From: Erythrobacteraceae bacterium
GTDB taxonomy: Bacteria > Pseudomonadota > Alphaproteobacteria > Sphingomonadales > Sphingomonadaceae
NCBI GenBank assembly: GCA_027489065.1
Contig: JAIYAM010000038.1
Location: 1-64,000 of the forward strand
Length of the DNA: 64,000 nt
Direction: 5' to 3'
Shown: positions 19,575-48,438 of the stretch, piece by piece
Layout of the letters: every line of letters begins with the position of its first letter
Numbering within the stretch: position 1 is the first letter of the stretch
The notes under the pieces: model-generated
Told to the model about the DNA's origin: nothing
The model's input: only the letters and a program-made list of their open reading frames with translations
Database searches by the model: none
Program-made: the position numbers and the translations under genes

Positions 19575-19629
19575 TGCCAGACCCGGCCTAGACCCCTGCC
19601 AGACCCCCGCTAGACCCCCTCCAGACCCC
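19575..19629 (-). repeat. Array of five 11-bp GGGGTCTRGNN repeats beside parS
   Basis: Read on the minus strand, five units of exactly 11 bp follow one another from 19629 down to 19575. All contain GGGTCT followed by R-G, and the fifth has C for the first G. The last two bases of the unit vary. The first unit begins 11 bp after the parS site at 19641-19656. The most distal unit also pairs with GCCGGGT at 19561-19567, so a small hairpin may end the upstream gene. Similar arrays lie beside the other two parS-like sites. Confidence 0.85.
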
Positions 19630-19640
19630 AGCTTGGTGCC

Positions 19641-19656
19641 TGTTTCACGTGAAACA
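19641..19656. other. parS centromere site 1 (perfect)
   Basis: TGTTTCACGTGAAACA is a perfect 16-bp palindrome identical to the widely conserved bacterial chromosomal parS, bound by ParB as the CTP-dependent clamp-loading site. It lies 10 bp beyond the stop of the PilZ gene in a convergent intergenic space. Its presence, with two more degenerate copies in the window, suggests an origin-proximal segment. Confidence 0.9.
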
Positions 19657-19665
19657 TCGGCTCCG

Positions 19666-20013
19666 TCAGATCACCTGACGGAAGGTCCCGATATTGCTGT
19701 AGCGTTGCAGGATATTGTCGTGGACGATCGGGCTCAGGAGCTCCGAAAAGGCGCAGCCGACGATGCAATTGTCCCACCACACGACCTCGGCCTGAAGGGC
19801 CTCGAGCCCCGGCAGCGTCAGCCAGCACATCTGGCCTTCGTGCATCCGGTTGATCGAGGCGGCGGAGAAGCCGGAGATGGAAAGATCGTGCACGACGCTC
19901 TGGAAGGCGCGGCCTCCCGAAGCGCGCAAGGTCGCCGGGATTGTCAGACGCGTGCGCGGCGAGCAGCGGTCTTCCTGCGCTGCAATGCGGTAGGGATCGG
20001 AACTGATCGGCAT
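19666..20013 (-). CDS. PilZ-domain protein (c-di-GMP binding)
   Basis: A 115-residue single PilZ domain. The c-di-GMP motif is present: the R-x3-R-type stretch 'EDRCSPRTRLTIPATLR' and D-x-S-x-x-G as DLSISG in 'VVHDLSISGFSA'. A C-terminal strand pair 'QAEVVWWDNCIVGCAFSELL' follows as usual. It probably binds cyclic di-GMP and acts on a partner protein, for example in motility or polysaccharide synthesis. The ATG at 20013 has AAGG about 9 bases upstream; the longer frame to 20067 has no such site. Its stop is 10 bp from parS site 1. Confidence 0.85.
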   Translation of the reverse strand: MPISSDPYRIAAQEDRCSPRTRLTIPATLRASGGRAFQSVVHDLSISGFSAASINRMHEGQMCWLTLPGLEALQAEVVWWDNCIVGCAFSELLSPIVHDNILQRYSNIGTFRQVI

Positions 20014-20153
20014 CGCTAATGACCTTGTTTCGAAGCCTGCGGTCTCGTGGGGCGAATTGGTCCACACGCAGGTTTGCCCCCGCGATCCCTTACGACAGGC
20101 TAGCGAAGAAGGTTAACGGCGCGCTAGGGAGACACCCCGAGGCGCGCGAGCGA

Positions 20154-20870
20154 TCAGCCGATGCGTTCGCGGTGCAGGGTGTCGAACCCCTCGGCGAGGA
20201 GGGCGACGAGACGATCCGCCACCACTTCGGGTGCCTTGACGCTCATCGGGTCCTCGCCCGGATAGGCGCGGGCGCGCATCTCGGTGCGGGTCGCGCCGGG
20301 ATCGACGATGGCGACGCGCAAGGGGCACAGGCGCTCGACTTCGGCGGCATAGGTTTCGAGCAGGTTCTCGAACGCGGCCTTGGTGGCACCGTATCCGCCC
20401 CAATAGGGCCGCGGCGCCGAGCCGACCGAACTGGTCAGGCCGACGATCCGGCCCGCCTTGGCGCGGCGCAGCATTTGGTCGAAGCCGGCGATCAGCGCCT
20501 GGGTCGCGACCACATTGGTGAGCAGCGCCTGGTTGAACTGCTTTGGCTCCATCTGCGAGGCCGGGGTGAGCTCGGGCAGGTAAGCTGCCGAGAGCACCAT
20601 GATGTCGAGCGTCTGCCAGCGTCCGGCAATGGCGGCCGCGAGCCGCGTCACCGCCTCGGGCTCGGTGAGGTCGACCGGCGCGATGGTCGAGGTGCCGCCG
20701 ATCGCGTGGATCGCATCCTCGACCTCCTCCAGCGCCTTCACCTTGCGGGCAACGAGAATGACGTGCGCGCCCGCTGCGGCAAGCGCCTTGGCGGTGGCGG
20801 CACCGATGCCGCGGCTGGCGCCGGTGACGAGCGCGGTCTGGCCGGCGAGCGGCTTGGCAGTATCGGTCAT
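20154..20870 (-). CDS. Short-chain dehydrogenase/reductase of unknown substrate
   Basis: A 238-residue NAD(P)-dependent SDR: TGASRGIG nucleotide motif at residues 16-23, 'LVARKVKALEEVEDAI' following the second strand (Arg-Lys suggests NADP preference), an NNAG-equivalent 'VLSAAYLPEL' that is divergent, and the active site 'GLTSSVGSAPRPYWGGYGATKAA' with Ser, Tyr and Lys. The C-terminus 'VDPGATRTEMRARAYPGEDP' fits the group often annotated as oxidoreductase of the FabG type. It follows purF by 6 bases on the same strand and is likely co-transcribed with it, although a link to purine synthesis is not apparent. Confidence 0.9.
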   Translation of the reverse strand: MTDTAKPLAGQTALVTGASRGIGAATAKALAAAGAHVILVARKVKALEEVEDAIHAIGGTSTIAPVDLTEPEAVTRLAAAIAGRWQTLDIMVLSAAYLPELTPASQMEPKQFNQALLTNVVATQALIAGFDQMLRRAKAGRIVGLTSSVGSAPRPYWGGYGATKAAFENLLETYAAEVERLCPLRVAIVDPGATRTEMRARAYPGEDPMSVKAPEVVADRLVALLAEGFDTLHRERIG

Positions 20871-20876
20871 GGGAGG

Positions 20877-22364
20877 TCAGGCTGCTTTCGGATCGGCGAA
20901 GGGAAGCTCGGCGGCCTTCTGTTCGGCCAGCGCGAGGTCGGTGAGCGAGGTGGGATACTCGCCGGTGAAACAGGCGTCGCAGAACTGCGGACAAGCCTTG
21001 TCGCGGCCCTGCTTGCCGACGGCGCGGTAGAGCCCGTCAATCGAGATGAAGGCGAGGGTGTCAGCCTTGATGAACTCGCGCATCGGCTCAAGCTCCATGC
21101 GCGCGGCAAGCAGCTTGGAGCGTTCGGGCGTGTCGACGCCGTAGAAGCAGGAATGCGCGGTCGGCGGGCTGGCGACGCGGAAGTGGACTTCGGCTGCACC
21201 GGCCTCGCGCATCATCTCGACGATCTTGAGGCTGGTGGTGCCGCGCACGATCGAATCGTCGATGAGCACGATGCGCTTGCCTTCCACGAGCGCGCGGTTG
21301 GCGTTGTGCTTGCGCTTCACGCTCGAATGGCGTGCGCCGTCGGAAGGCTGGATGAAGGTGCGCCCGACATAGTGCGAACGGATGATGCCGAGCTCGAAGG
21401 GCAGCCCCGATTGCTGGGCGAAGCCGATCGCCGCGGGCACGCCGCTGTCGGGCACGGGAACGACGAGGTCGGCCTCGCAAGGCGCCTCGATGGCGAGTTC
21501 CATGCCGATCGCCTTGCGCGCTTCGTAGACCGAACGCCCGGCGAAGACCGAGTCCGGCCGGCTGAAATAGACGTGCTCGAAGATGCAGGGGCGTGGGGCC
21601 GGGCTGCCGAAGGGGCGGACCGAGCGGATTTCGCCGGCGAAATCGACCAGCACCAGCTCGCCCGGTTCGACTTCGCGGATCACTTCCGCGCCGACCACGT
21701 CGAAGGCCACCGTTTCCGAAGCGAACATGATCGCGTCGCCCGAGCGGCCCATCACCAGCGGGCGGATGCCGAGCGGGTCGCGGCAGGCGATCATGCCCTC
21801 AGGGGTCATGACGATGAGGGCATAAGCGCCCTCGACCAGCCGCAGCGCATCGACCAGCCGGTCGGCGATGGTCGGATAGCGGCTGGTGGCGACGAGGTGG
21901 ATGATCACCTCGGTGTCTGAGGTCGACTGGAAGATCGAGCCCTTGTTCACGAGATCCGCGCGCAAGGTCATCGCGTTCGAGATATTGCCGTTGTGCGCGA
22001 CCGCGAAGCCGCCGCTGGCAAGGTCCGCATAGAGCGGCTGGACGTTTCTGAGGCCAGCGCCTCCGGTCGTCGAATAACGCACGTGGCCGGCCGCCATGTG
22101 GCCGGGCAGCGAGGCAATGGCTTCCGACGAGGTGAAGTTCTCCGCGACATGGCCAAGGCCGCGCCGCGCGTAGAATTCCGTGCCGTCAAAGCTGACGATG
22201 CCGGCTGCTTCCTGCCCGCGGTGCTGGAGCGCGTGGAGGCCCAGCGCGGTGGTGGCCGCGGCGTCGCTTGCGCGGATTGCGCCGAAGATGCCGCATTCCT
22301 CGCGCAACTTGTCGCCATCGGCATCGAGGAAAGGATGGGTCACATTGAGGGGTGTCATCGGCAT
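20877..22364 (-). CDS. purF: Amidophosphoribosyltransferase
   Basis: PurF makes 5-phosphoribosylamine from PRPP and glutamine, the first committed step of purine synthesis. The 495-residue protein has a short propeptide before the Ntn nucleophile Cys in 'REECGIFGAI', the glutaminase domain with 'HALQHRGQEAAGI' and 'GHVRYSTTG', and the phosphoribosyltransferase domain with the PRPP loop 'VLIDDSIVRGTT'. The C-terminal cysteines (KQGRDKACPQFCDACFTGEYP) resemble the Fe-S type of PurF. Two adjacent ATGs (22364 and 22358) are possible; the first is given. Transcription runs into the SDR gene. The 237-bp gap to lolC carries no gene. Confidence 0.95.
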   Translation of the reverse strand: MPMTPLNVTHPFLDADGDKLREECGIFGAIRASDAAATTALGLHALQHRGQEAAGIVSFDGTEFYARRGLGHVAENFTSSEAIASLPGHMAAGHVRYSTTGGAGLRNVQPLYADLASGGFAVAHNGNISNAMTLRADLVNKGSIFQSTSDTEVIIHLVATSRYPTIADRLVDALRLVEGAYALIVMTPEGMIACRDPLGIRPLVMGRSGDAIMFASETVAFDVVGAEVIREVEPGELVLVDFAGEIRSVRPFGSPAPRPCIFEHVYFSRPDSVFAGRSVYEARKAIGMELAIEAPCEADLVVPVPDSGVPAAIGFAQQSGLPFELGIIRSHYVGRTFIQPSDGARHSSVKRKHNANRALVEGKRIVLIDDSIVRGTTSLKIVEMMREAGAAEVHFRVASPPTAHSCFYGVDTPERSKLLAARMELEPMREFIKADTLAFISIDGLYRAVGKQGRDKACPQFCDACFTGEYPTSLTDLALAEQKAAELPFADPKAA

Positions 22365-22601
22365 CACCAGAGAGTCCGCGAGCGTCCCGCCGCCGGGCCA
22401 AGACCCAATGGCGATGTGACAGGCCAATTACAAGGAAAAGCGGGTCAGACCGAGCGGGTTTTTGCGGAACGCGGTGCGACGGCCGTGCGCGGCCCTCGAG
22501 GTGCGCAAGCGGCAGGACGAGAAGGGTGCCCGGGGATTGCCGGGGCAGGCAAGCCGCTCTACAGGCAGCGTTCAGCGAACAACGGGCACCCCTCACCACC
22601 C
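22365..22601. other. Intergenic stretch between divergent purF and lolC
   Basis: This stretch holds no convincing gene, RNA or repeat. Promoters for both flanking genes must lie here, but no strong -35/-10 pair or operator stands out. No purine-riboswitch-like fold was recognised. Confidence 0.5.
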
Positions 22602-23855
22602 ATGCTCTCCCCCTTCGAATGGATGATCGCCAAGCGCTACCTCTGGCCCGGCAAGGGGGAGGCGTTCATCGCGCTGGTCGCAGGCATTTCCGTGGGCGTG
22701 GTGATGCTCTCGGTCGCCATGCTGGTGATCGTGATGAGCGTGATGAACGGCTTTCGCGGCGAGCTGCTCGATAAGATCGTGGGCCTCAACGGCCATGCGG
22801 TGGTGCAGGCCTATGGCGGCCGGCTCGACAATTGGCGCAGCGTGCTCGCCAATGTCGAGCGCACGCCGGGCGTGACCAGTGCCTCGCCGATGATCGAGCA
22901 GCCGCTGCTGGTGCAGTATAACGGGCGTACCGAGGCGATCTTCCTGCGCGGGCAGAGCGACAGGGACCTGACGGCGCTCGCCGACAAGGTGCTCCTCGGC
23001 GACATGAAGAGCCTTTACGCACCCCCCGGCGAATCCGGCTATGGCCGGGTCGCGATCGGCAGCCAGCTTGCCCAGAACCTCGGCGTGCGGGTCGGCGATG
23101 TCATCACCATCATCAATCCCGCGGGGCGCACCACGCCCTTCGGCACCTCGATCCGCCAGGTCGGCTACGAGGTCGGCGCGATCTTCGAGGTGGGCATCTA
23201 CACCTTCGACGAGAAGTTCGTGATGATGCCGCTGAAGGAGGCGCAGACGCTGCTGCTGATGGGGGATTCGGTCGCGCAGATCGAGATCACCGTGACCGAC
23301 CCCGACAAGGTCGGCGAAACTCTCGAACCGGTTGCCAAGCGATTGTCCGGCCAGGCGGTGATCGCCGACTGGAAGACGATGAACTCGGCGCTGTTCGAGG
23401 CCTTGCAGGTCGAGCGGGTGGCGATGTTCTTCGCCCTGTCCTTCATGGTGCTGGTTGCGGCCTTCAACATCCTCTCCAGCCTCGTGATGCTGGTGCGCGC
23501 CAAGACCCGCGACATCGCCATCATGCGCACGATGGGCGCAACGCGGCGTTCGATGCTCAAGATCTTCGTGACGACGGGGACGACGGTGGGCGCGATCGGG
23601 ACGCTGGCAGGCCTTGCCCTCGGCGCGATCGTGCTGTTCTTCCGTGAACCGATCGTCGACTTCATCGCTTGGGCGACCGGCCAGGAAATCTGGGACCCGC
23701 AGGTTCGCTTCCTTACCACGCTGCCCTCGCGCACCGATCCCTGGGAAATTCTCGGGATCGTCACCCTCGCGCTGACGATGAGCTTCCTTGCGACGCTCTA
23801 TCCGGCATTGAAGGCCGCGAACACCGATCCGGTGCAGGTGCTGCGCTATGAATAA
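22602..23855 (+). CDS. lolC: Lipoprotein-releasing ABC transporter permease (LolC/LolE type)
   Basis: An inner-membrane permease of the Lol exporter that frees mature lipoproteins for the LolA chaperone. The 417-residue protein has the FtsX/MacB layout: a first membrane segment (about 22-48, '[35 protein letters not shown]' in pieces), a large periplasmic domain (49-265), then three segments near 268-292, 315-345 and 378-398. The conserved '[32 protein letters not shown]' coupling region contacts the ATPase, and the tail '[18 protein letters not shown]' is typical. Only this permease gene is present, so it may form a homodimer (LolF-like). The next gene, lolD, overlaps by 8 bases. Confidence 0.92.
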
Positions 23856-24528
23856 CTCCGCTCCCATCGTCGCCCTGCGCGGCCTCAGGCGCTCCTTCGA
23901 GCAGGGCGGGCAGCGCATCGACGTGCTGCGCGGGGTCGATCTCGACATCATGCCGGGCGAGATCGTCGCGCTGCTCGGGCCTTCGGGGTCGGGCAAGTCG
24001 ACCATGCTGCAGGCGGTCGGCCTGCTGGAAGGCGGGTTCGAGGGATCCATCGCCATCGCCGGTCAGAAGGCCGAGCACATGGCCGGGGACGAGCGCACCA
24101 GCTTGCGCCGGGAGCATCTCGGTTTCGTCTACCAGTTCCACCACCTGCTCCCCGACTTCGACGCACGCGAGAACGTGGTGATGCCGCAGATGATCCGCGC
24201 GGTCCCCCGCGCCGATGCCGAGGCGCGGGCCGACAGCCTGCTCACCAGCTTGGGCCTCGGCCAGCGTCTGACCCACCGCCCCAGCCAGCTTTCGGGCGGC
24301 GAACAGCAGCGCGTTGCGGTCGCCCGTGCGCTCGCCAACCGGCCCACTCTGGTGCTGGCCGACGAGCCGACCGGCAATCTCGACGAAGCCACCGCCGACA
24401 ACGTGCTCGCCGAATTCCTCGCGCTGGTGCGGGGCGAGGGCAGCGCGGCGCTCGTCGCCACGCATAACGAACGCCTCGCCGCGCGCATGGATCGCGTCGT
24501 CCGCCTGCGGGAAGGCGTGCTGATCTAG
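23848..24528 (+). CDS. lolD: Lipoprotein-releasing system ATP-binding protein
   Basis: The ATPase that drives LolC/E-type lipoprotein release from the inner membrane. The 226-residue protein has Walker A in GPSGSGKST, the Q-loop '[17 protein letters not shown]', the signature [15 protein letters not shown], Walker B '[13 protein letters not shown]' and the H-loop '[17 protein letters not shown]'. The 'FQFHHLLP'-like Q-loop is diagnostic of LolD. It starts 8 bases before the end of the permease gene, so translation is coupled. It is followed by a small hypothetical gene after 57 bp. Confidence 0.95.
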
Positions 24529-24585
24529 GATAGGCGGAAGCATCCTCCCGCCGCCCCACAATCGTCGGCTCAAGGAGGATCCCAC

Positions 24586-24873
24586 ATGACCGACCATCCC
24601 AGCACCTTTCAGGGCGGCACCAACACGTCGGGTGAGCAGGCGTGGGACGACCGCGCGACGCTCATGCCCGCGACCCAAGGCGATCAGCTCGCAGGCGGCG
24701 GCGTTCCGCTGCTGCGCGGCACCTTCGCCGCAATGATCCGCCACTTGGCGCAGCTCCCGGAGGAGGACCGGCACGGCTATGTCATCGCCAAGGCCGGGGA
24801 TCGAACCTACAGCGCCGAAGAAGCGATGGCCCTTGCCAGCGAGCCCGGTTTTCCCGCAGAAGGCTCCGGCTGA
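24586..24873 (+). CDS. Small hypothetical protein, 95 residues
   Basis: A soluble 95-residue protein. The first third is polar (THPSTFQGGTNTSGEQAWDD), followed by 'GGGVPLLRGTFAAMIRHLAQLPEEDRHGYVIAKAGDRTYSAEEAMALASEPGFP', which looks like a small alpha/beta domain. It has a strong AAGGAGG ribosome site 7 bases before the ATG, and the frame keeps normal codon use, so it is a real gene. I recognise no family. It lies between lolD and the glutathione peroxidase gene on the same strand, 57 and 21 bases away, and may share their transcript. Confidence 0.72.
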   Translation: MTDHPSTFQGGTNTSGEQAWDDRATLMPATQGDQLAGGGVPLLRGTFAAMIRHLAQLPEEDRHGYVIAKAGDRTYSAEEAMALASEPGFPAEGSG

Positions 24874-24894
24874 ACGAGAACAACCGGGGGCATC

Positions 24895-25374
24895 ATGACG
24901 ACCATCGCCGACTTCACCGTCACCACCAACCGGGGGCAGGACCTCGATCTCAAGGACAAGCTCGGCACGGTGCTGCTGGTGGTCAACACCGCCAGCAAGT
25001 GCGGCTTCACCCCGCAATATGACGGGCTCGAGAAGCTCTTCCAGCAGTACAAGGACCGCGGGTTCGAGGTGCTGGGCTTCCCCTGCAACCAGTTCGGCGG
25101 GCAGGAGCCGGGCAATGCCGAGGAGATCGAGCAGTTCTGCAAGGTCAATTTCGGCGTCACCTTCCCGCTGATGGCGAAGGTCGAGGTGAACGGCGCCGAT
25201 GCCTCGCCGCTGTTCGACTGGCTGAAGTCGGAAAAGAAGGGGCTGATGGGGACGAGTGCGATCAAGTGGAACTTCACCAAGTTCCTGATCGACCGGCAGG
25301 GCCATGTCGTGAAGCGCTACGCCCCGACCGACAAGCCCGAGGCGATCGCAAGGGACATCGAGAAGCTGCTTTAG
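24895..25374 (+). CDS. Glutathione peroxidase (Cys form)
   Basis: A 159-residue thiol peroxidase of the GPx family that reduces hydrogen peroxide or lipid peroxides with a thiol. The active site 'NTASKCGFTPQY' has Cys36 in place of selenocysteine; 'GFPCNQFGGQEPG' holds the conserved Gln and a resolving Cys, and 'IKWNFTKFLIDRQGHVVKRYAP' holds the active-site Trp and Asn. All four catalytic residues are present. No signal peptide, so it acts in the cytoplasm, probably with thioredoxin as donor. It ends 77 bases before dnaE. Confidence 0.93.
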   Translation: MTTIADFTVTTNRGQDLDLKDKLGTVLLVVNTASKCGFTPQYDGLEKLFQQYKDRGFEVLGFPCNQFGGQEPGNAEEIEQFCKVNFGVTFPLMAKVEVNGADASPLFDWLKSEKKGLMGTSAIKWNFTKFLIDRQGHVVKRYAPTDKPEAIARDIEKLL

Positions 25375-25451
25375 GCTTTTGCGCTGCCCTGTGCACAACA
25401 TAAGCGTTCGGGGTGCTTTGAGAATCGCCGCGACTTCCTAGATTGCGAGGG

Positions 25452-33593: not shown

Positions 33594-34691
33594 TCACAGC
33601 AGAGCGAGTTGGCCATCGCTTCGCGGCGCCCGGAAGCGCGAAGAATCGAGTTCGAACCGCGCCTTGCCAATCCCCGCCTTGCGGCACGCCACCTTGAAGC
33701 GGGCGCGGATCAGGTCGGCCCAGACGCCTTGCGGATTGAAGCGGCTGTGGAAGTTGGGATCATTGTCCCGCCCGCCGCGCATCTCGCGCACGATCCCCAT
33801 CACCTTGCCCGCGCGATCAGGGTAGTGGACGCCAAGCCATTCGCGAAACAGCGGGGCGACTTCGTGGGGGAGGCGCAGCGGGATCCCGCCGACGCTGGTG
33901 ACACCGAGTTCGCCTGCGCGGGCGACGATGCTCTCGAGGAACTCGTCGGTGATCGCCGGGATGATCGGGGAGATCGAGCAATGCGCCGGCACGCCCATCT
34001 CGACCAGTTTCCCCAGCGCTGCCAGACGCTTGGCAGGCGAGGTACAGCGCGGCTCGAGCTTGGCCGACAGCACCGGATCGAGGCTCGTCACCGAGATCGC
34101 CACCGCCACCAGGTTCTCGCGCGCCATTGCTTCGAGCAGGTCGGAATCGTCCAGCACCCGATCGGACTTGGTGGTGATGGTGACGGGGTGGCGCACCTCG
34201 AGGCACAGTTCGAGGATCGCCCGCGTGATCCGATAATCGCGCTCGATCGGCTGATAGGGATCGGTGTTGGTGCCGAGCGCTATGGGCTTGGGATCATAGC
34301 CCTTTTTCGCCAGCGTCGCGCGCAGCAGCGCCGCCGCATCGGGTTTGGCGAAGAGCTTCGTCTCGAAGTCCAATCCGGGGGAGAGGTCGTGATAGGCGTG
34401 GGTGGGCCGGGCGAAGCAGTAGATGCAGCCGTGCTCGCAGCCGCGATAGGCGTTGACCGAGCGGTCGAAGGGGACGTCGGGGGACTGGTTGAAGGTGAGA
34501 ATCGACTTCGGCCGCTCCTCGATCACGGTGGTGCGCAGCTTTACGGGCGGGCCCCCGTCTTCATTGGCCAAGGTCTCGACGTAATCGCGCCAGTCGCCGT
34601 CGACCTCCCGCTCTGCCAGTCCGAAGCGGGTGGGGACCGCCCCCGACTGCGCACCGCGACCTTTGACCGGAGAATGTTTCACATGGAACAT
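33594..34691 (-). CDS. PA0069-family radical SAM protein
   Basis: A 365-residue radical SAM protein related to spore photoproduct lyase (PA0069/Rv2578c group). The 4Fe-4S cluster motif CxxxCxxC is in 'AYRGCEHGCIYCFARP'; then 'IALGTNTDPYQPIERDYRITRAIL', 'TITTKSDRVLDDSDLL' and 'VGGIPLRLP' follow the usual barrel order. Its substrate is not known; a DNA or protein modification is guessed from relatives. The gene begins M-F-H-V-K-H because its first codons are the parS-like site 2 read in reverse. A conserved 'KGRGAQSGAVPTRFGL' immediately after supports this start. Confidence 0.9.
   Translation of the reverse strand: MFHVKHSPVKGRGAQSGAVPTRFGLAEREVDGDWRDYVETLANEDGGPPVKLRTTVIEERPKSILTFNQSPDVPFDRSVNAYRGCEHGCIYCFARPTHAYHDLSPGLDFETKLFAKPDAAALLRATLAKKGYDPKPIALGTNTDPYQPIERDYRITRAILELCLEVRHPVTITTKSDRVLDDSDLLEAMARENLVAVAISVTSLDPVLSAKLEPRCTSPAKRLAALGKLVEMGVPAHCSISPIIPAITDEFLESIVARAGELGVTSVGGIPLRLPHEVAPLFREWLGVHYPDRAGKVMGIVREMRGGRDNDPNFHSRFNPQGVWADLIRARFKVACRKAGIGKARFELDSSRFRAPRSDGQLALL
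34675..34690. other. parS-like site 2, inside the start of the radical SAM gene
   Basis: TGTTTCACATGGAACA on the plus strand (TGTTCCATGTGAAACA on the minus) matches parS at 14 of 16 positions, and at 15 of 16 when the tolerated fifth position is ignored. It supplies codons 1-6 of the minus-strand gene. Affinity for ParB would be lower than for site 1. Confidence 0.65.
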
Positions 34692-34760: not shown

Positions 34761-34793
34761 GGGGTCTGGTGTGGGTCTGGCGGGGGTCTGGAG
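34761..34793 (+). repeat. Array of three 11-bp GGGGTCTRGNN repeats beside parS site 2
   Basis: Three contiguous 11-bp units occupy 34761-34771, 34772-34782 (first base T) and 34783-34793, all with GGGTCTGG, and a partial unit GGGATC follows. A decayed copy (GATCTGGAG) lies upstream at 34731-34739. The order parS then GGGGTCT on the same strand is the same as at the other two loci, but the spacer is 70 bp. Confidence 0.75.
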
Positions 34794-34820: not shown

Positions 34821-35414
34821 TTACTTGTCGGCGGGCATTCGATATCCGCTTGCCGCGACGCAGGCCGGTGCGGAAGCCTCGCGATAGGGCTTGTCCCAGC
34901 AGCTCAGGAGGCCGGCGAGCACGCCTGCGTTGACCGCGTTGCTGCGACCGGGCTCGGCCTTGAGCGATTCGAAGGCGACCTCCAAAGCGCTCCTGTCGCG
35001 CACAAGGAAGGCATAGGTGCCCTGAACATAGAGGTTCCAGCGCATCTCGCCGATCTCGGTCTGGCGCCGCGCGGTGGCGATCAGCTGCGCCGCTTGCTCA
35101 TGGCGGCCCGCATTTGCCAGCGACTGACCGAGATGGAAGCGTGCCGTGGTCTGCCACCGCTCGCCCTCGGGAACCGGGCCGTAGGCGAGATAATCGGTAT
35201 AGGCGCGCACCGCTTCCTCGTCGCAGCCGCGCTCGACCAGAGCGCGCCAGCTCGTCGGAACCGACCCCGCCTGATCGAAGTCGCGCCATGCCAGCGCGCG
35301 ATTGGCGAGAAGATCGGCATCGTCCAGACGGCAGCTGTCCTCATCGGATGCCATGGCCGGAGCCGCCGCGCAAAGCACAGCCAGCAGCAGAGCGAGGCGG
35401 GGCGAGCGCCGCAT
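34821..35414 (-). CDS. Secreted TPR-like protein, unknown
   Basis: A 197-residue exported protein. Signal peptide (MRRSPRLALLLAVLCAAAPAMA), then a mainly helical mature part with tetratricopeptide-like helices: 'LLANRALAWRDFDQAGSVPTSWRAL', 'RWQTTARFHLGQSLANAGRHEQAAQLIATARRQ' and 'RSALEVAFESLKAEPGRSNAVNAGVLAGLLSCW'. Four cysteines (residues about 29, 64, 170 and 184) could make two disulphides. It is the last gene of an unbroken minus-strand run of UDG, Slt, MoaB and itself, joined to moaB by TGATG. No named family is recognised. Confidence 0.75.
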   Translation of the reverse strand: MRRSPRLALLLAVLCAAAPAMASDEDSCRLDDADLLANRALAWRDFDQAGSVPTSWRALVERGCDEEAVRAYTDYLAYGPVPEGERWQTTARFHLGQSLANAGRHEQAAQLIATARRQTEIGEMRWNLYVQGTYAFLVRDRSALEVAFESLKAEPGRSNAVNAGVLAGLLSCWDKPYREASAPACVAASGYRMPADK

Positions 35415-38635: not shown

Positions 38636-40285
<1,650 letters not shown>

Positions 40286-40292
40286 TTTTTCG

Positions 40293-40703
40293 ATGACCGC
40301 CGTACCCGAACTGGTTCTAGACGGCAGTCGGATTTGGTCGCTTGAGTCTTTCTGGGACGAAGTCAGCCGCAGCCTCATTCCAGGAGCGGGGTGGGGCCGG
40401 AATCTGGATGCATTCAACGACATCTTGCGCGGGGGCTTTGGCACCCCGCCGGAAGGCTTCATTTTGCGGTGGAAAGATTCCGAGACTGCGAGAGCATTTC
40501 TCGGATACGAAGAGACGGCACGCCAGCTTGAGATCCGGCTGGACGAATGCCATCCTGAAAACATCTTCCACGTGAATGCTAAGCTCGAGAGAGCGAGGCG
40601 CGGCGAAGGTCCGACGGTTTTCGATTGGCTCGTGGAAATTATCAAAGAGCACGGCGAAGGGGGCGAAGAAGCTGATAGCAACGTGCGACTTGTTCTCGAG
40701 TGA
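40293..40703 (+). CDS. Orphan barstar-like ribonuclease inhibitor
   Basis: A 136-residue acidic protein with the barstar fold (PF01337): 'LVLDGSRIWSLESFWDEVSRSLI', the conserved 'GWGRNLDAFNDILRGGFGTP' loop whose Asp residues plug the barnase active site, and a C-terminal helix pair. Barstar relatives neutralise secreted or contact-delivered RNase toxins. No barnase-type toxin is adjacent. The gene is clearly more AT-rich than its neighbours (TTT, ATT and GAA codons are frequent) and sits neatly between ETF-QO and ispE, so it was probably acquired. It starts 7 bases after ETF-QO and would be read on the same transcript. Confidence 0.8.
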   Translation: MTAVPELVLDGSRIWSLESFWDEVSRSLIPGAGWGRNLDAFNDILRGGFGTPPEGFILRWKDSETARAFLGYEETARQLEIRLDECHPENIFHVNAKLERARRGEGPTVFDWLVEIIKEHGEGGEEADSNVRLVLE

Positions 40704-40717
40704 GATGGTTTAGCCTT

Positions 40718-41515: not shown

Positions 41516-42228
41516 GCGAGGTCTTCCGCCAGATCGGCACGCCCACCGCCGGCGGCATCGTCTGCGTCGTCGACCACGCCTCCAACGCCGTGCCTGCCGA
41601 CATCAACTTGCGGATACCCGAGCGCCTGCTCCACGAGCACATCGCCCTCGACATCGGCACCGAGGCGATCGCGGAGTTGCTGGCAAAAGACCACGCCATC
41701 CCCGCCCATATCGCCGCCGTCAGCCGCCTCGTCTGCGACCTGAATCGCGAGGAGACCGCCCCCGGCCTTGTCCCCGAAGCCTCGGACGGCCACCCGATCC
41801 CGGGCAATGTCGGCGCGGACAGGGAAGGGCGGCTCGCCCGCTTCCACCGGCCCTACCACACCACGCTGGCAGAGTGGCTGGCGGCAACGGAGCCCGCGCT
41901 GATCCTCTCGCTCCACAGCTTCACGCCGCGCCTTGAAACCAGCGATGCCGCCCGGCCCTGGGAGGTGGGGGTGCTCTACAATGAGGACGACCGCGCCGCG
42001 CGCATCGCCATTCCGCTGCTCGCGGCGCAAGGACTGAATGTGGGCGACAACCTCCCCTATTCGGGCCGCGATCTCAACTACACCATGAACCGCCATGCCG
42101 AGGCGCACGCGCGCCCCTACCTCGGCATCGAGCTGCGGCAGGACCTTGTCCAGACCCCCGCCGATCACGCCCGCTGGTCCGCGATATTGGCAGGTATTGC
42201 GCAAAGGGTTGCGTCAGCGCTCGCCTGA
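41512..42228 (+). CDS. N-formylglutamate amidohydrolase family protein
   Basis: A 238-residue zinc-dependent amidohydrolase (PF05013) related to HutG-type enzymes that release formate from N-formylglutamate. Motifs are 'VVDHASNAVPADINLRI', which holds a metal His, 'HIALDIGTEAIAELLAKD', 'SRLVCDLNREETAPGLVPEASDGHPIPGN' and 'LSLHSFTPRLE', 'NRHAEAHARPYLGIELRQDLV'. The start is GTG at 41512 overlapping the ispE stop. No other histidine-degradation genes are near; the paralogue often travels with housekeeping genes, so the true substrate is open. ilvD follows 42 bases on. Confidence 0.88.
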   Translation: MSEVFRQIGTPTAGGIVCVVDHASNAVPADINLRIPERLLHEHIALDIGTEAIAELLAKDHAIPAHIAAVSRLVCDLNREETAPGLVPEASDGHPIPGNVGADREGRLARFHRPYHTTLAEWLAATEPALILSLHSFTPRLETSDAARPWEVGVLYNEDDRAARIAIPLLAAQGLNVGDNLPYSGRDLNYTMNRHAEAHARPYLGIELRQDLVQTPADHARWSAILAGIAQRVASALA

Positions 42229-42270
42229 AGGCAGGGGGCGTTTCGCGAAAACGCTTCATCGGGAAATCTT

Positions 42271-43992
42271 ATGTCGCACAAGTTTGACAAGTCGAAGCTC
42301 CCCAGCCGCCACGTTTCGGTCGGCCCGGAGCGCGCGCCGCACCGCTCCTACTACTACGCGATGGGCATGACCGAGGAGGAGATCGCCGCGCCCTTCGTCG
42401 GCGTGGTCAGCGCGGGCAATGATTCGGCACCGTGCAACACGACCCTCAACGCCCAGGCCGATATCTGCCGCGAAGGCGTGATCGCGGGCGGCGGCACGCC
42501 TCGCAGGTTCAACACCATCACTGTCACCGATGGCATCGCAATGGGCCACCAGGGCATGAAAAGCTCACTGATCAGCCGCGAGATCATCGCCGATTCTATC
42601 GAGGTTTCGGTCCGAGGCCATTGTTATGACGCGCTTGTCGGCTTTGCCGGCTGCGACAAGAGCCTGCCCGGCATGATGATGGCGATGCTGCGGCTGAACG
42701 TGCCCTCGATCTTCGTCTATGGCGGCTCGATCCTCCCCGGCACGCACCGCGGCAATGACGTGACGGTGGTCGACGTGTTCGAGGCGGTGGGGCAATATGC
42801 CGCCGGCAATTGCCCGCTGACCGAGCTGATCGCATTGGAAAAGGTAGCATGCCCCGGCCACGGTGCCTGCGGCGGCCAGTTCACCGCCAACACCATGGCC
42901 TGCGTCGGCGAGGCGATTGGTTTATCCTTGCCGAACAGCAACATGACGCCCGCTCCTTTCAGATCGCGTGACGATATTGCGGTCGCCGCGGGCAAGCAGG
43001 TGATGGAGCTTGTCGCCATGGACCTGCGCCCCCGCGACATCTGCACCCGTGAGGCCTTCATGAACGCCGCGCGGGTCGTCGCGGCCACCGGCGGATCGAC
43101 CAATGCTGCGCTCCACCTGCCTGCGATGGCCAGCGAGGCGGGCATCGAATTCGATCTGTTCGACGTCGCCGAAGTCTTCAAATCAACGCCTTATATCGCA
43201 GACTTGAAGCCCGGCGGGAAGTATGTCGCCAAGGACATGCACGAGGCGGGCGGGGTCTACATGGCGATGAAGACGCTGCTTGACGGCGGGTTCATCGATC
43301 CCAACCCGATCACCGTCACCGGCAAGACCATCGGCGAGAACCTCGAAGAGATCACCTGGAACCCCGACCAGAAGGTGTTCTACGACGTGAAGACCCCCAT
43401 TACGCCGACCGGCGGGGTCGTCGGCCTCAAGGGCAGCCTAGCCCCTGACGGCGCGATCGTGAAGGTCGCCGGCATGGCGCGCCTCAAGTTCTCCGGTCCG
43501 GCTCGCGTGTTCGACTGCGAAGAGGACGCCTTCGCCGCCGTCGAACAGCGCGACATCGCCGAAGGCTGCGTCGTCGTCATCCGCTATGAAGGCCCCAAGG
43601 GCGGTCCCGGCATGCGGGAGATGCTCTCGACCACCGCCGCGCTTTACGGACAGGGCATGGGCGAGAAGATCGCGCTGATCACCGACGGACGCTTCTCGGG
43701 GGCAACGCGCGGCTTCTGCATCGGCCATGTCGGCCCCGAGGCGGCGGACGGCGGCCCGATCGCGCTGGTCGAGAACGGCGACATCATCACCATCGATGCC
43801 GAGGCGGGCACCATCGACCTCGAGGTCGCCGAGGAGGTGCTGGCGGAGCGCCGCAAGGGCTGGCAGCCCCGCACCAACGACTATCAGTCGGGCGCGCTGT
43901 GGCGCTACAGCCAGGTCGTCGGCAAGGCGCGCTTCGGTGCGCTCACCCATCCCGGAGCCAAGGCGGAAACCCATGTTTTTGCGGACATCTAG
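42271..43992 (+). CDS. ilvD: Dihydroxy-acid dehydratase
   Basis: IlvD converts 2,3-dihydroxy-isovalerate and the methylvalerate homologue to the 2-oxo acids, the penultimate step in isoleucine and valine synthesis. The 573-residue protein has the Fe-S cysteines in '[11 protein letters not shown]', '[16 protein letters not shown]' and '[20 protein letters not shown]', and the conserved '[21 protein letters not shown]' substrate loop. Length and order are normal for the class binding a 2Fe-2S or 4Fe-4S cluster. A small TTTCGCGAAA palindrome lies just upstream. The next gene begins inside its last 20 bases. Confidence 0.96.
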
Positions 43993-44332
43993 CGCGGTCG
44001 CGGCCCTTGCCCTGCTGGCGGCTTGCGGCGATGTCAGCCCGGCGCCGTCCGGCGAGACCATCGAATGCGCGATCGGCGCGGGCACCGACTTTGCCTCCGT
44101 GTGCACGCTGGAGCGCGTCGCGGGCAAGCAGGAGATCATCCTCCATCATCCCGACGGTGGGTTCCGGCGCATGACCTACGTTCCTGCCACGGGGACACTC
44201 GCGCCCCTCGACGGGGCCGATCCGCTGGTGCTGGAGGAGGGCGAGGGCGTGGTGCAATTCGCACTTGGCGCCAACCGCTACCGCATCCCGCGCGGGGCCC
44301 AGCAAGATCCGGCGCCCACGCCGACGCCGTGA
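43973..44332 (+). CDS. Small lipoprotein of unknown function
   Basis: A 119-residue lipoprotein: signal peptide with lipobox LAAC at residues 16-19 ([20 protein letters not shown]). The mature part has two cysteines ([16 protein letters not shown]) that may pair and a beta-rich sequence '[55 protein letters not shown]' that ends in a proline/threonine tail. It overlaps the ilvD end by 20 bases and the nnrD start by 4 bases (GTGA). The function is unknown; similar small lipoproteins sit at this site in related genomes by my recollection, which is not verified here. Confidence 0.78.
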
Positions 44333-45720
44333 GCGCCGCCCAGGTCCTCACCGCCGCCCAGATGCGCGCCGCAGAGCAGGCGCTGTTCGATGCGGGGACG
44401 AGCGTTTCGGACCTGATGGAGATCGCCGCCGGTGGCGCGGCCGAGTGGATCCGGCGGATCGCCGCCGGTCGCGCCGTCACGGTGCTGTGCGGTCCCGGCA
44501 ACAATGGCGGCGATGGATACGTGATCGCCCGGCGCCTGCGGGCGGCCGGCAATGCCGTGACCGTCATCGCCCCGCTCGCTCCCGCGACCGACGCCGCCGA
44601 GGAGGCGTGCCGCCGCTGGGGCGGGCCGGTTGCGCAGGCCGCCGATGGGGCTCCCGGCGATGTCTTCGTCGACTGCCTGTTCGGCTCCGGCCTGGCCCGA
44701 CCCTTGTCCGAGGCCCACGCCGCGCTGCTGCGCGAACTTGCCACGCGGCACCGCTACCGGGTGGCAGTCGACCTGCCTTCCGGGGTAGCAACCGACACCG
44801 GCGCGGTGCTGAACGAAGGGCTTCCCGCCTTCGATCTCACGCTGGCGCTCGGCGCGTGGAAGCTCGCGCACTGGAGCCTCCCCGGCCGCGCATTGATGGG
44901 GCAGATGCGGCTCGTCCCGATCGGGATCGCGGAGGTTGCGGGGGCGGCGCAGCTGATCGGGCGCCCGCGCATCGCTGCGCCTGCCGCAGACAGCCACAAG
45001 TATCGCCGCGGTCTGCTCGCCATGGTCACGGGCGCCATGCCGGGCGCGAGCCTGCTCGCCGCTGCTTCTGCCCAGCACGCGGGGGCGGGCTATGTGAAGC
45101 TGCTGGCCGATCAGGCCGATCCGCGCACGCCGCCCGATGTGGTGACGGACACCGCCCCACTTGCAGAGGCGCTGGCGGACCGGCGCATCGCGGCGGTGCT
45201 GGCCGGACCGGGGCTTGGACGAGACGATGCGGCGCGGGCCAGGCTCTGCGCCGTTCTCGAGCACTCTCCGGCGCTGGTGCTCGATGCCGACGCGTTGATG
45301 CTCCTTGGCCCGGAGATGCTCGCGCGCAAGGTGCCGATCCTGGCGACCCCGCACGACGGCGAGCTCGACGCACTGTGCCGCAGCTTCGGCGTCGCGGGCG
45401 ACACCCGGCGGGATCGCGCCCTCGCTCTTGCCGCCACGAGCGGGATGGTGGTGCTGGCGAAGGGCCCCGACAGCATCGTCGCCGCGCCCGATGGCCGCCT
45501 CGTGCTCGGAACCCCTGCGCCGAGCTGGCTTTCGGTGGCGGGTACGGGCGACGTGCTTGCCGGGATCGCGGCGAGCCGCATGGCGACGGGCGCCGATCCT
45601 TTCACCGCCGCAGCGCAAGCCCTGTGGCTCCACGCAGAGGCGGCGCGGCGCGCGAGAGCCGCCTTCACGCCATCGCAGCTTGCCGAAAGGGTGCAGGAGG
45701 CGCTAGCGGCCTGCCTGTGA
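44329..45720 (+). CDS. nnrD: Bifunctional NAD(P)HX epimerase/dehydratase
   Basis: A 463-residue repair enzyme for hydrated NADH/NADPH. The N-terminal YjeF_N epimerase domain (about 1-205) has 'LTAAQMRAAEQALFDAGTSVSDLMEIAA', 'CGPGNNGGDGYVIARRL' and 'DCLFGSGLARPL'. The C-terminal ribokinase-fold dehydratase (about 215-463) has 'HKYRRGLLAMVTGAMPGASLLAA', 'VLAGPGLGRDD', 'VLDADALMLL', 'ILATPHDGEL' and 'SVAGTGDVLAGIAASRM', the ADP/ATP site. The GTG start overlaps the lipoprotein stop, and its own stop overlaps the next GTG (GTGA), so three genes are tightly coupled. Confidence 0.95.
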   Translation: MSAAQVLTAAQMRAAEQALFDAGTSVSDLMEIAAGGAAEWIRRIAAGRAVTVLCGPGNNGGDGYVIARRLRAAGNAVTVIAPLAPATDAAEEACRRWGGPVAQAADGAPGDVFVDCLFGSGLARPLSEAHAALLRELATRHRYRVAVDLPSGVATDTGAVLNEGLPAFDLTLALGAWKLAHWSLPGRALMGQMRLVPIGIAEVAGAAQLIGRPRIAAPAADSHKYRRGLLAMVTGAMPGASLLAAASAQHAGAGYVKLLADQADPRTPPDVVTDTAPLAEALADRRIAAVLAGPGLGRDDAARARLCAVLEHSPALVLDADALMLLGPEMLARKVPILATPHDGELDALCRSFGVAGDTRRDRALALAATSGMVVLAKGPDSIVAAPDGRLVLGTPAPSWLSVAGTGDVLAGIAASRMATGADPFTAAAQALWLHAEAARRARAAFTPSQLAERVQEALAACL

Positions 45721-46913
45721 CCTTGCCCGACCCCATCATCCGCCTCGCCGCCAAGGGCGACGGCGTGACCGCCTCCGGCCGCCATGTGTCCGGCGCGGTA
45801 CCGGGGGATGTGGTGGACGAGAGCGGCGAGGTCACTCCCGGTGAGCACCACCAGACACCGCCCTGTCGCCACTTCGGCGTGTGCGGCGGGTGCCAGCTGC
45901 AGCACGCCGACGACGCTGTGCTCGCCAACTTCGTGCAGGGCCGCGTCGTGTTTGCCGCGCGCTCGCAGGGGCTGGAGCCGGAGGAGCTGCTCCCCGTTCA
46001 CCTCTCCCCGCCGCACAGCCGCCGCCGCGCGGGCTTGCACGGCTTGCGCACGGCTCGGGGCGCGGTGCTGGGCTATCGCGAGGGCGGATCGCACCGCGTG
46101 GTCGATCTTGCCGAGTGCCCGGTGCTCCATCCCGCACTTGCCGCGCTGATCGCGCCCTTGCGGCGCTTCGTGGCGGCGCATGGCCCCAAGGCGATGGTCG
46201 GGATCGACCTGACCCTCGCCGATCAGGGCGTGGAGGCGAACCTCACTCACTTCCCGCTGGAAGGCTTGGGTCCGACCGAAGCGGCGCTCGATTTCGCGCG
46301 CGATCAAGGGCTTGCGCGGCTCACCATCGATCAGGGCTACGGTCCGGAGACGCTGTGGGAGCCCGAGCCGGTGACTGTGACCCTTTCGGGCGTGCCGGTC
46401 GGCCTGCCGCCGGGCGCTTTCCTTCAAGCGACGCATGATGCGGAGACCCGCATGGCCGCCGATGCCGCCGAATGGCTTGCCGGCGCGCGGGTCGTGGCCG
46501 ATCTGTTCGCCGGTCTCGGCACCTTCGCCTTTGCGCTCAGAGCGGACCGCAAGGTGCTCGCCGTCGAGGCGGAGCGCGCAGCGCATCTCGCCTGCAAGGC
46601 GGCGGGCGCGCGCACGGGTGGTCAGGTGCTGGCGCTCCATCGCGACCTGTTCCGATCGCCCCTCATGCCCGAGGAGCTGAACCGCTTCGATGCCGTGCTG
46701 CTCGATCCTCCCCGTGCCGGGGCCCGCGCGCAAGTCGCTGAAATCGCGGCGAGTACCTTGCAGCGCGTGGTCTATGTCAGCTGCAATCCGTCAAGCTGGG
46801 CGCGCGATGCGGCGACGCTGGCGCAAGGGGGCTTCCGGCTCACCAAGCTGCGCGGCGTGGGCCAGTTCCGCTGGTCGACCCATGTCGAGCTGGTCAGCCT
46901 CTTCGAGCGTTAG
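45717..46913 (+). CDS. RlmD/RumA-like 23S rRNA uracil-C5 methyltransferase
   Basis: A 398-residue SAM-dependent RNA m5U methyltransferase. Four cysteines that usually hold a 4Fe-4S cluster are seen in 'CRHFGVCGGCQLQHA' and 'AECPVLHP'. No full TRAM domain precedes them; the N-terminus is short ('ITIRLAAKGDGVTASGRHVSGAVPGD'-like). The Rossmann part has 'VVADLFAGLGTFAFALRA', 'FDAVLLDPPRAGARAQVAE' and the catalytic Cys in 'VYVSCNPSSWARDAA'. The start is a GTG overlapping nnrD. Its stop overlaps that of the opposing hydrolase gene by 3-4 bases (TTAG). Target nucleotide (U747 or U1939 types) cannot be told. Confidence 0.9.
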   Translation: MTLPDPIIRLAAKGDGVTASGRHVSGAVPGDVVDESGEVTPGEHHQTPPCRHFGVCGGCQLQHADDAVLANFVQGRVVFAARSQGLEPEELLPVHLSPPHSRRRAGLHGLRTARGAVLGYREGGSHRVVDLAECPVLHPALAALIAPLRRFVAAHGPKAMVGIDLTLADQGVEANLTHFPLEGLGPTEAALDFARDQGLARLTIDQGYGPETLWEPEPVTVTLSGVPVGLPPGAFLQATHDAETRMAADAAEWLAGARVVADLFAGLGTFAFALRADRKVLAVEAERAAHLACKAAGARTGGQVLALHRDLFRSPLMPEELNRFDAVLLDPPRAGARAQVAEIAASTLQRVVYVSCNPSSWARDAATLAQGGFRLTKLRGVGQFRWSTHVELVSLFER

Positions 46914-47689
46914 GCGCGCAAAGCTTCCAGCAGTTGCGCTTCGAGCCAGGCGCGGTGTTCGGGCTCGACATAGGCGTGGCCTGCACCCTCGCAGCGGCGG
47001 ATCCGGGGATCGCCTTTTTGCCACGCGACTTCAAACACTTGCGCGGTCCGGTCGGCGGCCGCGAGGAGGATGCGCACCTCGCCCGCAAAGTCCGCAAGGC
47101 CGGCGGCCATGTCCTGTGCGAGGCTCGAGGGGGGCGGGGGCGGGCGTAGCGCATGGGCTACGCCTCTCGCGAGCTTGCCGAGATTGACCCCGCCGCTCGC
47201 CAAACGCAGGACTTCACGCGGGTTTTTCAGCTTTTCGGCATAGCGCGCGCGGATCGCGGCAGGAGGAGCGGCCGCTCCGCCCGCGCCCTCTTCGATCGTC
47301 CACGGGTTGGAAAGCACCAGCGCGTCGACGCCAGCGCCGCTTGCCAACATCAGCGCCGAGGCCGCGTCGCAATTGCCGAAAGCGACCACCCGGCATACCT
47401 GCGGAGCCATCGCCCGGAAGGCGTCGAGCGCGCAGGCGATGTCTTTGGAAGCGCTGCGAAATCCCCGGTTCTCGCCTTCGCTGTCGCCGATCCCGCGGCG
47501 GTCGAAACGGAACACCGGGAAGCCTGCGCGGGCGATGCGGGCGGCCATGTCGGCTTGCCCGCCGAAGGCCCCGGCGCGGATTTCGTTGCCGCCGCTGACG
47601 ATCAGCAGCCCGGTGGTCCCCGGCGCTGTATCGAGCGTGCCCGCGAGCGTCAGGCTACCGCAGCCGAAGGTGTGCGAAAGGCGGCTCAT
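46910..47689 (-). CDS. Exosortase A system-associated hydrolase 1
   Basis: A 259-residue alpha/beta-hydrolase of the group that accompanies XrtA clusters (TIGR03100 type). 'GLLIVSGGNEIRAGAFGGQADMAARIARAGFPVFRFDRRGIGDSEGENRGF' is its hallmark; the nucleophile position of the fold, in 'VVAFGNCDAASAL', holds a Cys rather than Ser, and 'EGAGHAYVEPEHRAWLEAQLL' carries the His. A proline-rich loop (RPPPPPSS) is variable. Its role in polysaccharide or lipid-like group handling is not proved. It follows hydrolase 2 by an ATGA overlap and converges with the RNA methyltransferase. Confidence 0.9.
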   Translation of the reverse strand: MSRLSHTFGCGSLTLAGTLDTAPGTTGLLIVSGGNEIRAGAFGGQADMAARIARAGFPVFRFDRRGIGDSEGENRGFRSASKDIACALDAFRAMAPQVCRVVAFGNCDAASALMLASGAGVDALVLSNPWTIEEGAGGAAAPPAAIRARYAEKLKNPREVLRLASGGVNLGKLARGVAHALRPPPPPSSLAQDMAAGLADFAGEVRILLAAADRTAQVFEVAWQKGDPRIRRCEGAGHAYVEPEHRAWLEAQLLEALRA

Positions 47690-48375
47690 CGCACTGATTC
47701 CGCGAGGTTTTGAGCGATGACTGCGGCGAGGCGGTCGGCCTGTCCAGCATCGTCATCGGGCTCGGCGCGCAGCCACAATCCGGGTCCGCCGAGCGCTGTT
47801 TGGGGGATGTCCGACTGGGCGGGGCCAAGCGCAGGCTCGGCCGCTTCGAGGGCGCCGACGATCGCCGCGCCGAGGTGCCAGCCGCTCAAGGTCAGCCCTT
47901 CCGCCCGGCCCAACGCCACAAGTCCCTCGTACGTCTCGAATTTTCCCGCCTCGCGTGCAGCGATGGTCCGGGCGCGGATCATGGCGCGCAGGAGCTTGGG
48001 GCCGCTTTGGGCGGCATAGTGCCAGCCTGGCAGGCCCTGCGGCGCCACCAGCGCTCCGGCGCGGATCGCCAGCACATGGGTCGCACCCAGCGCCTCGGCA
48101 GCTGCGGCGGCGGCCACACGCCAGCTGTCAAGCGTTTGATCTGCCAAAGGAACGAGGCTCTCGTTGCACCCCGGCAAATCGGGTAGCAGGCTGTCGATCC
48201 CAGCCACATCGAGCCGCCGCATCACCTCCAGCGTGAAGCGGCGCAGCTTGTTCGCCTCGTCGAACCACGCCGGAAGGACAAGCACCCGCGCCGCACGGCC
48301 CCGGTCGAAGCCAACACAGGGCTCCTCACCCGAAAAACCGGGGGCCGAAGCCGGATTGTTCCACGTGAAAATCAC
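47686..48375 (-). CDS. Exosortase A system-associated hydrolase 2
   Basis: A 229-residue alpha/beta-hydrolase of the second XrtA-linked type (TIGR03101). Core pieces are 'RVLVLPAWFDEANKLRRFTLEVMRRLDVAGIDSLLPDLPGCNES', the 'FDEANKSRR' region being characteristic, and 'VLAIRAGALVAPQGLPGWHYAAQSGPKLLRAMIRAR'. The usual nucleophile Ser is replaced by Ala-Gly (IRAGAL), so it may be inactive or non-catalytic. Start is GTG at 48375; codons 2-6 overlap the parS-like site 3. The ACP gene ends 46 bases upstream with the repeat array between. Confidence 0.88.
   Translation of the reverse strand: MIFTWNNPASAPGFSGEEPCVGFDRGRAARVLVLPAWFDEANKLRRFTLEVMRRLDVAGIDSLLPDLPGCNESLVPLADQTLDSWRVAAAAAAEALGATHVLAIRAGALVAPQGLPGWHYAAQSGPKLLRAMIRARTIAAREAGKFETYEGLVALGRAEGLTLSGWHLGAAIVGALEAAEPALGPAQSDIPQTALGGPGLWLRAEPDDDAGQADRLAAVIAQNLAESVR
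48357..48372. other. parS-like site 3, inside the start of hydrolase 2
   Basis: TGTTCCACGTGAAAAT matches parS (TGTTNCACGTGAAACA) at 14 of 16 positions; only the last two differ. It lies in the first codons of the minus-strand hydrolase gene, within the XrtA cluster, and precedes the third 11-bp array. Confidence 0.6.
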
Positions 48376-48394
48376 CTCGAAGGCGCCCTTGCAG

Positions 48395-48438
48395 GGGGTC
48401 TAAGCGGGGTCTGGAGGGGGTCTAGCGGGGGTCTAGCT
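48395..48438 (+). repeat. Array of four 11-bp GGGGTCTRGNN repeats beside parS site 3
   Basis: Four contiguous 11-bp units run from 48395 to 48438. All begin GGGGTCT; the first has AA for RG. The first unit begins 22 bp after the parS-like site. The array covers the 46-bp space between two minus-strand genes and enters the end of the acyl carrier protein gene, whose TAG stop lies within unit 3. Polarity is the same as at the other parS loci. Confidence 0.8.

What the first reader, a model, noticed from the sequence alone, without database searches (positions are those of the whole stretch)
19575..48438. Composite element: parS followed by an 11-bp GGGGTCTRGNN tandem array, three times with the same polarity
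Each of the three parS-like sites in the window is followed on one strand by contiguous 11-bp repeats with core GGGGTCTRG: five units at 19575-19629 (minus strand), three at 34761-34793 and four at 48395-48438 (both plus). In each case the order is parS, then spacer (11, 70 and 22 bp), then the G-rich strand of the array. The period is exactly one helical turn, so a protein would meet each unit on the same face. Outside these loci I found no GGGGTCTRG arrays. Convergence of sequence, period, polarity and neighbour in three unrelated gene contexts argues against chance. It may be a binding array for a ParB partner, SMC loader or barrier to ParB sliding. Not described to my knowledge.
Basis: partly seen in the sequence, partly recalled or inferred. 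Interest (0 to 1): 0.93.

Follow-up and report, generated by a model that had tools for sequence, protein, structure and literature searches.

The report
Genome-wide parS sites with phased arrays
Some Erythrobacter-like bacteria carry dozens of copies of the chromosome-segregation site parS around the chromosome, most followed on one side by an 11-bp repeat array in step with parS, which points to an undescribed ParB-linked DNA element whose array-reading protein is still unknown.

Summary
Of 68 exact parS in this genome, 8 form the usual gidAB-parAB cluster without arrays; of the other 60, 53 carry an array. The opposite polarity gave 0 matches. The first consensus unit starts a multiple of 11 bp (within 1 bp) from the parS edge in 65 of 67 elements. 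The periodicity spans about 95 bp on that side only. Of 54 exact two-unit arrays, 46 have parS upstream; 8 are orphans.

parS multiplication is confined to part of GTDB Erythrobacter: 48 of 114 genomes have 7-69 sites, 66 have 0-5; in sampled ParB and ParA trees it is one clade. Elements keep orthologous positions, but the unit differs between species. In three genomes compared, dispersed sites share the cluster's parS variant. Convergent gene ends dominate: 35 of 62.

This favours ParB plus an unidentified, fast-evolving array reader and disfavours mobile repeats. What the complex does (one-sided station or barrier, termination, topology) is inference.

The parts
19641..19656 (.). parS of element 1, perfect palindrome
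   Evidence: 0 mismatches to TGTTYCACGTGRAACA
19575..19629 (-). array of element 1, five 11-bp units; first unit 11 bp from parS; lies between a convergent beta-lactamase-family gene (18302-19534 +) and a PilZ-domain gene (19666-20067 -)
34675..34690 (.). parS-like site of element 2; overlaps the called start of a radical-SAM gene (33594-34691 -), whose true start may lie further in
   Evidence: 1 mismatch
34761..34793 (+). array of element 2, three units after a 70-bp spacer (out of 11-bp phase), at the 3' end of an unassigned gene (34821-35354 -)
48357..48372 (.). parS-like site of element 3
   Evidence: 2 mismatches
48395..48438 (+). array of element 3, four units, 22 bp after parS; overlaps the 3' end of a phosphopantetheine-binding (carrier protein) gene (48422-48718 -)

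Best explanation
The element is a bipartite, vertically inherited nucleoprotein site. Shown from sequence: 60 exact parS outside the origin cluster in this genome, 53 of them joined on one side to a polar 11-bp array whose register is set by parS; placement mainly at convergent gene ends; conservation of position but not of unit sequence between species. Inferred: the chromosomal ParB loads at these parS as at the cluster; an unidentified, clade-specific, fast-evolving DNA-binding protein assembles head-to-tail on the array in register with ParB, one step per 11 bp; the complex is therefore one-sided and works as a local ParB (perhaps SMC) station whose array side stops or slows what comes from there, either sliding ParB clamps or RNA polymerase leaving the neighbouring gene. 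My odds for a selected ParB-plus-second-protein element are about 0.75; the number below is for the whole statement including the one-sided station role.
For: Phase lock between parS and array: 65 of 67 within 1 bp of a multiple of 11, Rayleigh R 0.91; G022 36 of 40. Periodic signal on one side only. Same parS variant in cluster and dispersed sites: G022 TGTTCCACGTGGAACA at 7 of 8 cluster and 45 of 47 dispersed exact sites; G081 0 of 8 and 2 of 26; this genome 0 of 8 and 1 of 74. A dedicated ParB paralogue is not needed: G003, G011, G081 and G156 (54, 54, 34, 38 parS) have one match each to the ParB model. Orthologous positions: 79 pairs of sites in five genomes with both flanks matching. Different units at the same places: GGGTCTRR twice or more at 65 of 74 sites here, 0 of 20 in G081, where a phased polar YRA signal is present instead (p=3e-4). 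Convergent setting 35 of 62 against 6 of 61 gene pairs in the window. SMC present in 10 of 10 genomes tested.
Against: No binder found; no binding data. 7 of 60 non-cluster exact parS here and 9 of 49 non-cluster sites (<=1 mismatch) in G022 lack a GGGTCTRR unit, and 8 of 54 arrays lack parS, so each half can exist alone. YRA phasing is not significant in G035 (9 sites, p=0.10), and in this genome the away strand does not beat the toward strand for YRA (p=0.11). The 16:6 orientation bias is weak (p=0.052; pooled with G022 21:10, p=0.07). No replichore orientation in G022 (12:12 among the 24 of 47 dispersed sites scored). Only 30 ParB loci plus G022 were used for the trees.
Confidence: 0.35

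Rival explanations
1. Transcription terminator or insulator of convergent genes: ParB at parS and the array protein act together as roadblocks that end transcripts from both sides; the chromosome-segregation role is secondary or absent.
For: 35 of 62 elements between convergent genes; parS often 4-30 bp after one stop codon and the array ending near the other. Terminator-like hairpins were found at more gene ends with the element (28 of 68) than without (5 of 28), p=0.03.
Against: The controls are few (14) and far shorter (median 32 against 133.5 bp), so that test is inconclusive. A terminator needs no exact parS that follows the cluster's variant. At one locus six genomes of the same genus keep the convergent pair without the element.
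Confidence: 0.2
2. Topological element: the phased array is a wrapping or bending track (for instance for a gyrase-type enzyme) set where positive supercoils gather between convergent genes, and ParB brings it to the segregation machinery.
For: 11-bp phasing over about 95 bp, convergent setting; YR steps recur in units of different species.
Against: A mechanical code should not need one strand polarity or a species-wide consensus such as GGGGTCT; polarity is 65 to 0.
Confidence: 0.1
3. Noc- or MipZ-like system: ParB on dispersed parS marks the whole nucleoid to keep cell division off it; the array only tunes ParB.
For: Sites are spread around both complete chromosomes examined and in G022 slightly more even than random (P=0.02; G081 P=0.23).
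Against: No thinning towards the terminus (KS p=0.67 and 0.62), which Noc sites are recalled to show; it does not explain the array.
Confidence: 0.12
4. Mobile or REP/MITE-like repeat that carries parS and an array.
For: Tens of intergenic copies, often at 3' ends; a few G022 copies share the first 11 bp after parS (L167, L196, L212).
Against: Sites recur at orthologous positions in different species; outside parS and the phased columns the copies do not agree; units differ by species at the same place.
Confidence: 0.04

Closest known systems
Chromosomal ParABS centromere (parS bound by ParB)
   Same: Same 16-bp palindrome; an ordinary gidAB-parAB cluster exists in the same genomes
   Different: Dispersed around the chromosome, not confined to the origin as published surveys state (passages of PMC5815017 and PMC7333895), and joined to a polar array
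Noc and its binding sites (NBS), Firmicutes
   Same: parS-like palindromes scattered around the chromosome for a ParB-family protein (abstract of PMC4331003 in listing; passages of PMC7333895)
   Different: Here the site is parS itself, ParB needs no paralogue, a terminus gap is not seen, and an array is attached
parC of ParMRC plasmids (R1 type)
   Same: 11-bp direct repeats bound by a segregation adaptor that builds a higher-order helical complex (passages of PMC9426499)
   Different: A plasmid locus beside parM; here tens of chromosomal copies beside parS; no ParR or ParM is implied
Low-affinity DnaA-site arrays of E. coli oriC
   Same: Sites in one orientation separated by 2 bp (passages of PMC6727663), i.e. 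a 9+2 layout like the 9-bp core plus NN here (9-mer size recalled), guiding head-to-tail filling from an anchor
   Different: Unit sequence is not a DnaA box (TTATNCACA, recalled) and differs between closely related species; many loci, not one origin

Membership tests
parS (chromosomal ParB site) | 16-bp palindrome matching the consensus | tested here: met
   68 exact sites in this genome
parS (chromosomal ParB site) | located near the origin / parAB | tested here: not met
   60 of 68 here lie outside the gidAB-parAB cluster; 47 of 55 in G022, 26 of 34 in G081
parS (chromosomal ParB site) | bound by ParB | not testable with these tools
   indirect only: shared parS variant between cluster and dispersed sites
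Noc/NBS | ParB paralogue present | tested here: not met
   G003, G011, G081, G156 have a single ParB-model match
Noc/NBS | sites depleted near the terminus (recalled) | tested here: not met
   uniform distances in G022 and G081
R1-type parC | tandem 11-bp direct repeats | tested here: met
R1-type parC | ParR/ParM genes beside the repeats | tested here: not met
   window loci flanked by beta-lactamase-family, PilZ, radical SAM, carrier-protein and unassigned genes; other loci not annotated
DnaA-site array | units resemble a DnaA box | tested here: not met
   units GGGGTCTRG, GCGCAAARCC-like and others, compared with a recalled consensus
REP/MITE repeat | copies share sequence and differ in position between relatives | tested here: not met
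   positions recur (79 orthologous pairs); copies agree only in parS and phased columns
Replichore-oriented motif (KOPS-like) | orientation follows replication direction | tested here: not met
   12 with, 12 against among the 24 of 47 dispersed G022 sites scored

The most novel reading that the evidence does not exclude
A new class of chromosomal element: dispersed ParB-loading stations made one-sided by a head-to-tail filament of an undescribed DNA-binding protein, built in register with ParB and with fast-evolving specificity, so that ParB clamps (and the SMC complexes they recruit) are confined or directed locally all around the chromosome and not only at the origin.
Probability: 0.3. Interest if true: 0.95.

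Novelty: categorically new. Interest (0 to 1): 0.9.

Why it matters
Published surveys hold that parS lie near the origin and that extra sites elsewhere are disfavoured (passages). A clade whose chromosomes keep many extra parS at conserved places, most of them in the genomes examined coupled to a polar array with a species-specific unit, breaks that rule and gives a natural experiment on ParB sliding and SMC loading. The bimodal genus (66 genomes with 0-5 exact sites, 48 with 7-69) supplies matched species with and without the system. I found no description of it in the paper searches, which cover an open-access library only.

Tried and rejected
A fixed-position profile for orienting G022 arrays was too strict because first units are sometimes 10 or 12 bp; only 24 of 47 dispersed sites passed it. 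The Fisher test used mistyped G081 counts (3/23 where one search gives 2/24) and is not used. The terminator comparison is confounded by length. A ParB paralogue as reader was dropped. Accelerated ParB evolution at the base of the clade was dropped because ParA has a comparably long stem for its rate; the four ParB sequences printed (two high-, two low-parS) all keep GERRWR. G-quadruplexes from GGGG runs and Rho loading on the C-rich strand were dropped as general mechanisms because the G081 and G035 arrays read lack such runs by eye. A DnaA filament was dropped on unit sequence and drift. The codon score of array-side against parS-side genes gave p=0.07. Reader identification by gene-content comparison was not possible with stretches only.

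Full report
What is there. The three window loci are as described. The window lies in a 3.38-Mb genome of 60 contigs. Titles of records that hold the composite (54 stretches, named Erythrobacter, Porphyrobacter, Erythrobacteraceae, Sphingomonadales or Alphaproteobacteria) point to GTDB Erythrobacter; the genome itself is unnamed. It has 68 exact parS and 90 sites at up to 2 mismatches. Eight exact sites form a cluster at gidAB-parAB and have no array. Of the other 60, 53 have an array, here meaning at least one GGGTCTR unit within 110 bp on one side, and 7 have none. Counting weaker sites, 74 non-cluster sites were examined, 67 with array; 8 of the 90 were not fetched.

Anatomy. In the 67 elements (53 exact, 13 with one and 1 with two mismatches) the letters carry an 11-bp periodic signal from the first base after parS to about +93, on one side only; upstream of parS only the last few bases deviate. 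Lag-11 identity is 0.51 on the array side, 0.27 on the other and 0.29 at control places; the array side is chosen by lag 11, and the control had the same choice. Units next to parS are weak (CAAG, CTRR), followed by consensus GGGGTCTRGNN. The first consensus unit begins within 1 bp of a multiple of 11 from parS in 65 of 67, and in 36 of 40 in G022. The pattern search gives 65 matches in one order and 0 in the other; two elements have one stray unit on the other side. Eight of 54 exact two-unit arrays have no parS within 150 bp.

Setting. With a simple codon-usage gene caller of mine, 35 of 62 elements with two called neighbours lie between convergent genes, 16 have the array at the 3' end of a co-directional neighbour, 6 the other way round, 5 lie between divergent genes; of the 67, 3 lie inside a called gene and 2 lacked a neighbour. 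Gene pairs in the window are convergent in 6 of 61. In G022, 15 of the 24 sites scored are convergent.

Distribution. Outside the genus 84 relatives have 0-4 exact parS; inside, 66 of 114 genomes have 0-5 and 48 have 7-69. The composite was found in 21 of 150 genomes, all in the genus. Exact GGGGTCTRG pairs occur in 27 of 114 genomes: 26 of the 48 high-parS ones and one (G026, a single match) of the 66 low ones. The other 22 high-parS genomes lack this unit; three genomes without strict composite matches (G035, G081, G172) were read, and arrays with other units were seen by eye at many of their sites. In trees of ParB (31 rows: the 30 best-scoring loci plus G022) and ParA (29 rows), all 21 high-parS rows form one side of a branch with support 100/100 and 100/99. 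One origin is the simplest reading; 27 high-parS genomes were not in the trees.

Complete chromosomes. G022 (2.98 Mb) has 8 exact parS within 5 kb and 47 elsewhere; G081 (3.61 Mb) has 8 and 26. The G022 cluster is at gidAB-parAB by its protein sequences. Distances from the cluster do not differ from uniform (KS p=0.67, 0.62). G022 uses TGTTCCACGTGGAACA at 7 of 8 cluster and 45 of 47 dispersed sites; G081 at 0 of 8 and 2 of 26; this genome at 0 of 8 and 1 of 74. Cluster and dispersed sites thus seem to answer to one reader, presumably ParB.

Evolution. Seventy-nine pairs of sites from five genomes are orthologous by tblastx on both flanks; they include naked sites. At such places arrays recur with other units, for example GGGGTCTRG here against CAAA/TAAA-type units in G081 (L231, L233, L217, L227, L232) and GCCAAAGCGC-like against GGGGTCAAAG-like units in G035 and G172 (L247, L239). 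GGGTCTRR occurs twice or more at 65 of 74 sites here, 37 of 57 in G022, 2 of 11 in G172, 0 of 20 in G081 and 0 of 9 in G035. Phased YRA exceeds shuffles in this genome (7e-7), G022 (3e-7), G081 (3e-4) and G172 (0.009) but not in G035 (0.10). The away strand exceeds the toward strand in G022 and G081 only. One locus was read in 30 genomes, nearly all high-parS: 27 had both flanks; 20 of these keep parS at <=2 mismatches, one has a decayed site, six have none and an intergenic region of 58-143 bases; units include CAATGA-type repeats in G048 and G058. Agreement of the unit within a genome, change between genomes and fixed positions are what a trans-acting, sequence-specific reader would produce. 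G172 shows two unit types, which may be an intermediate state.

Mechanism. Shown by sequence: bipartite, polar, register-locked, positionally conserved, convergent-biased. Inferred: ParB on the parS half, an unknown protein head-to-tail on the array, a one-sided local station. The weak bias in co-directional pairs (16 to 6, p=0.052; pooled 21 to 10, p=0.07) hints at shielding of ParB from incoming RNA polymerase, or at termination, more than at shielding of promoters. SMC is present in all 10 genomes tested, six high and four low, so an SMC role stays open.

Known systems. Passages of PMC5815017 and PMC7333895 say that parS lie almost exclusively near the origin, with up to 20-23 sites in a few species, and that ectopic sites are disfavoured. 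Passages of PMC6727663 and PMC9426499 give the nearest array layouts. For the Noc papers I saw the search listing and abstract starts and passages of a review. PMC6650430 and PMC8116508 were checked by passages and hold nothing of the kind.

Noticed in passing
G022 L192, own L032, G081 L234, G035 L253; also L193/L235, L211/L075/L218, L206/L243/L074: parS sites without array recur at the same places in several species, the first set apparently inside a coding gene (L193/L235 matched by eye only).
   Followed up: partly
L001, L017, L026, L028, L082, L087, L089, L104: Eight exact two-unit arrays have no parS within 150 bp on either side tested.
   Followed up: partly
own elements, e.g. L005, L011, L016, L063 and window 48439-48450: In at least eight elements the sequence ACTTTG follows the array, by eye in the listing; it may be an end mark.
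   Followed up: no
G172 loci L237-L246: Two unit types occur in one genome, GGGGTCAAAG-like and CACCYAACTG-like.
   Followed up: no
own and G022 parS flanks: Sites without a GGGTCTRR unit mostly carry AA before and TT after parS (19 of 24); sites with arrays vary more.
   Followed up: no
L257, L263, L266: At the locus three species have CGCGTG in place of CACGTG inside parS, so exact counts may understate element numbers there.
   Followed up: no
L316-L321: Six IMG/VR contigs hold the composite; whether these are phages or mislabelled host DNA was not examined.
   Followed up: no
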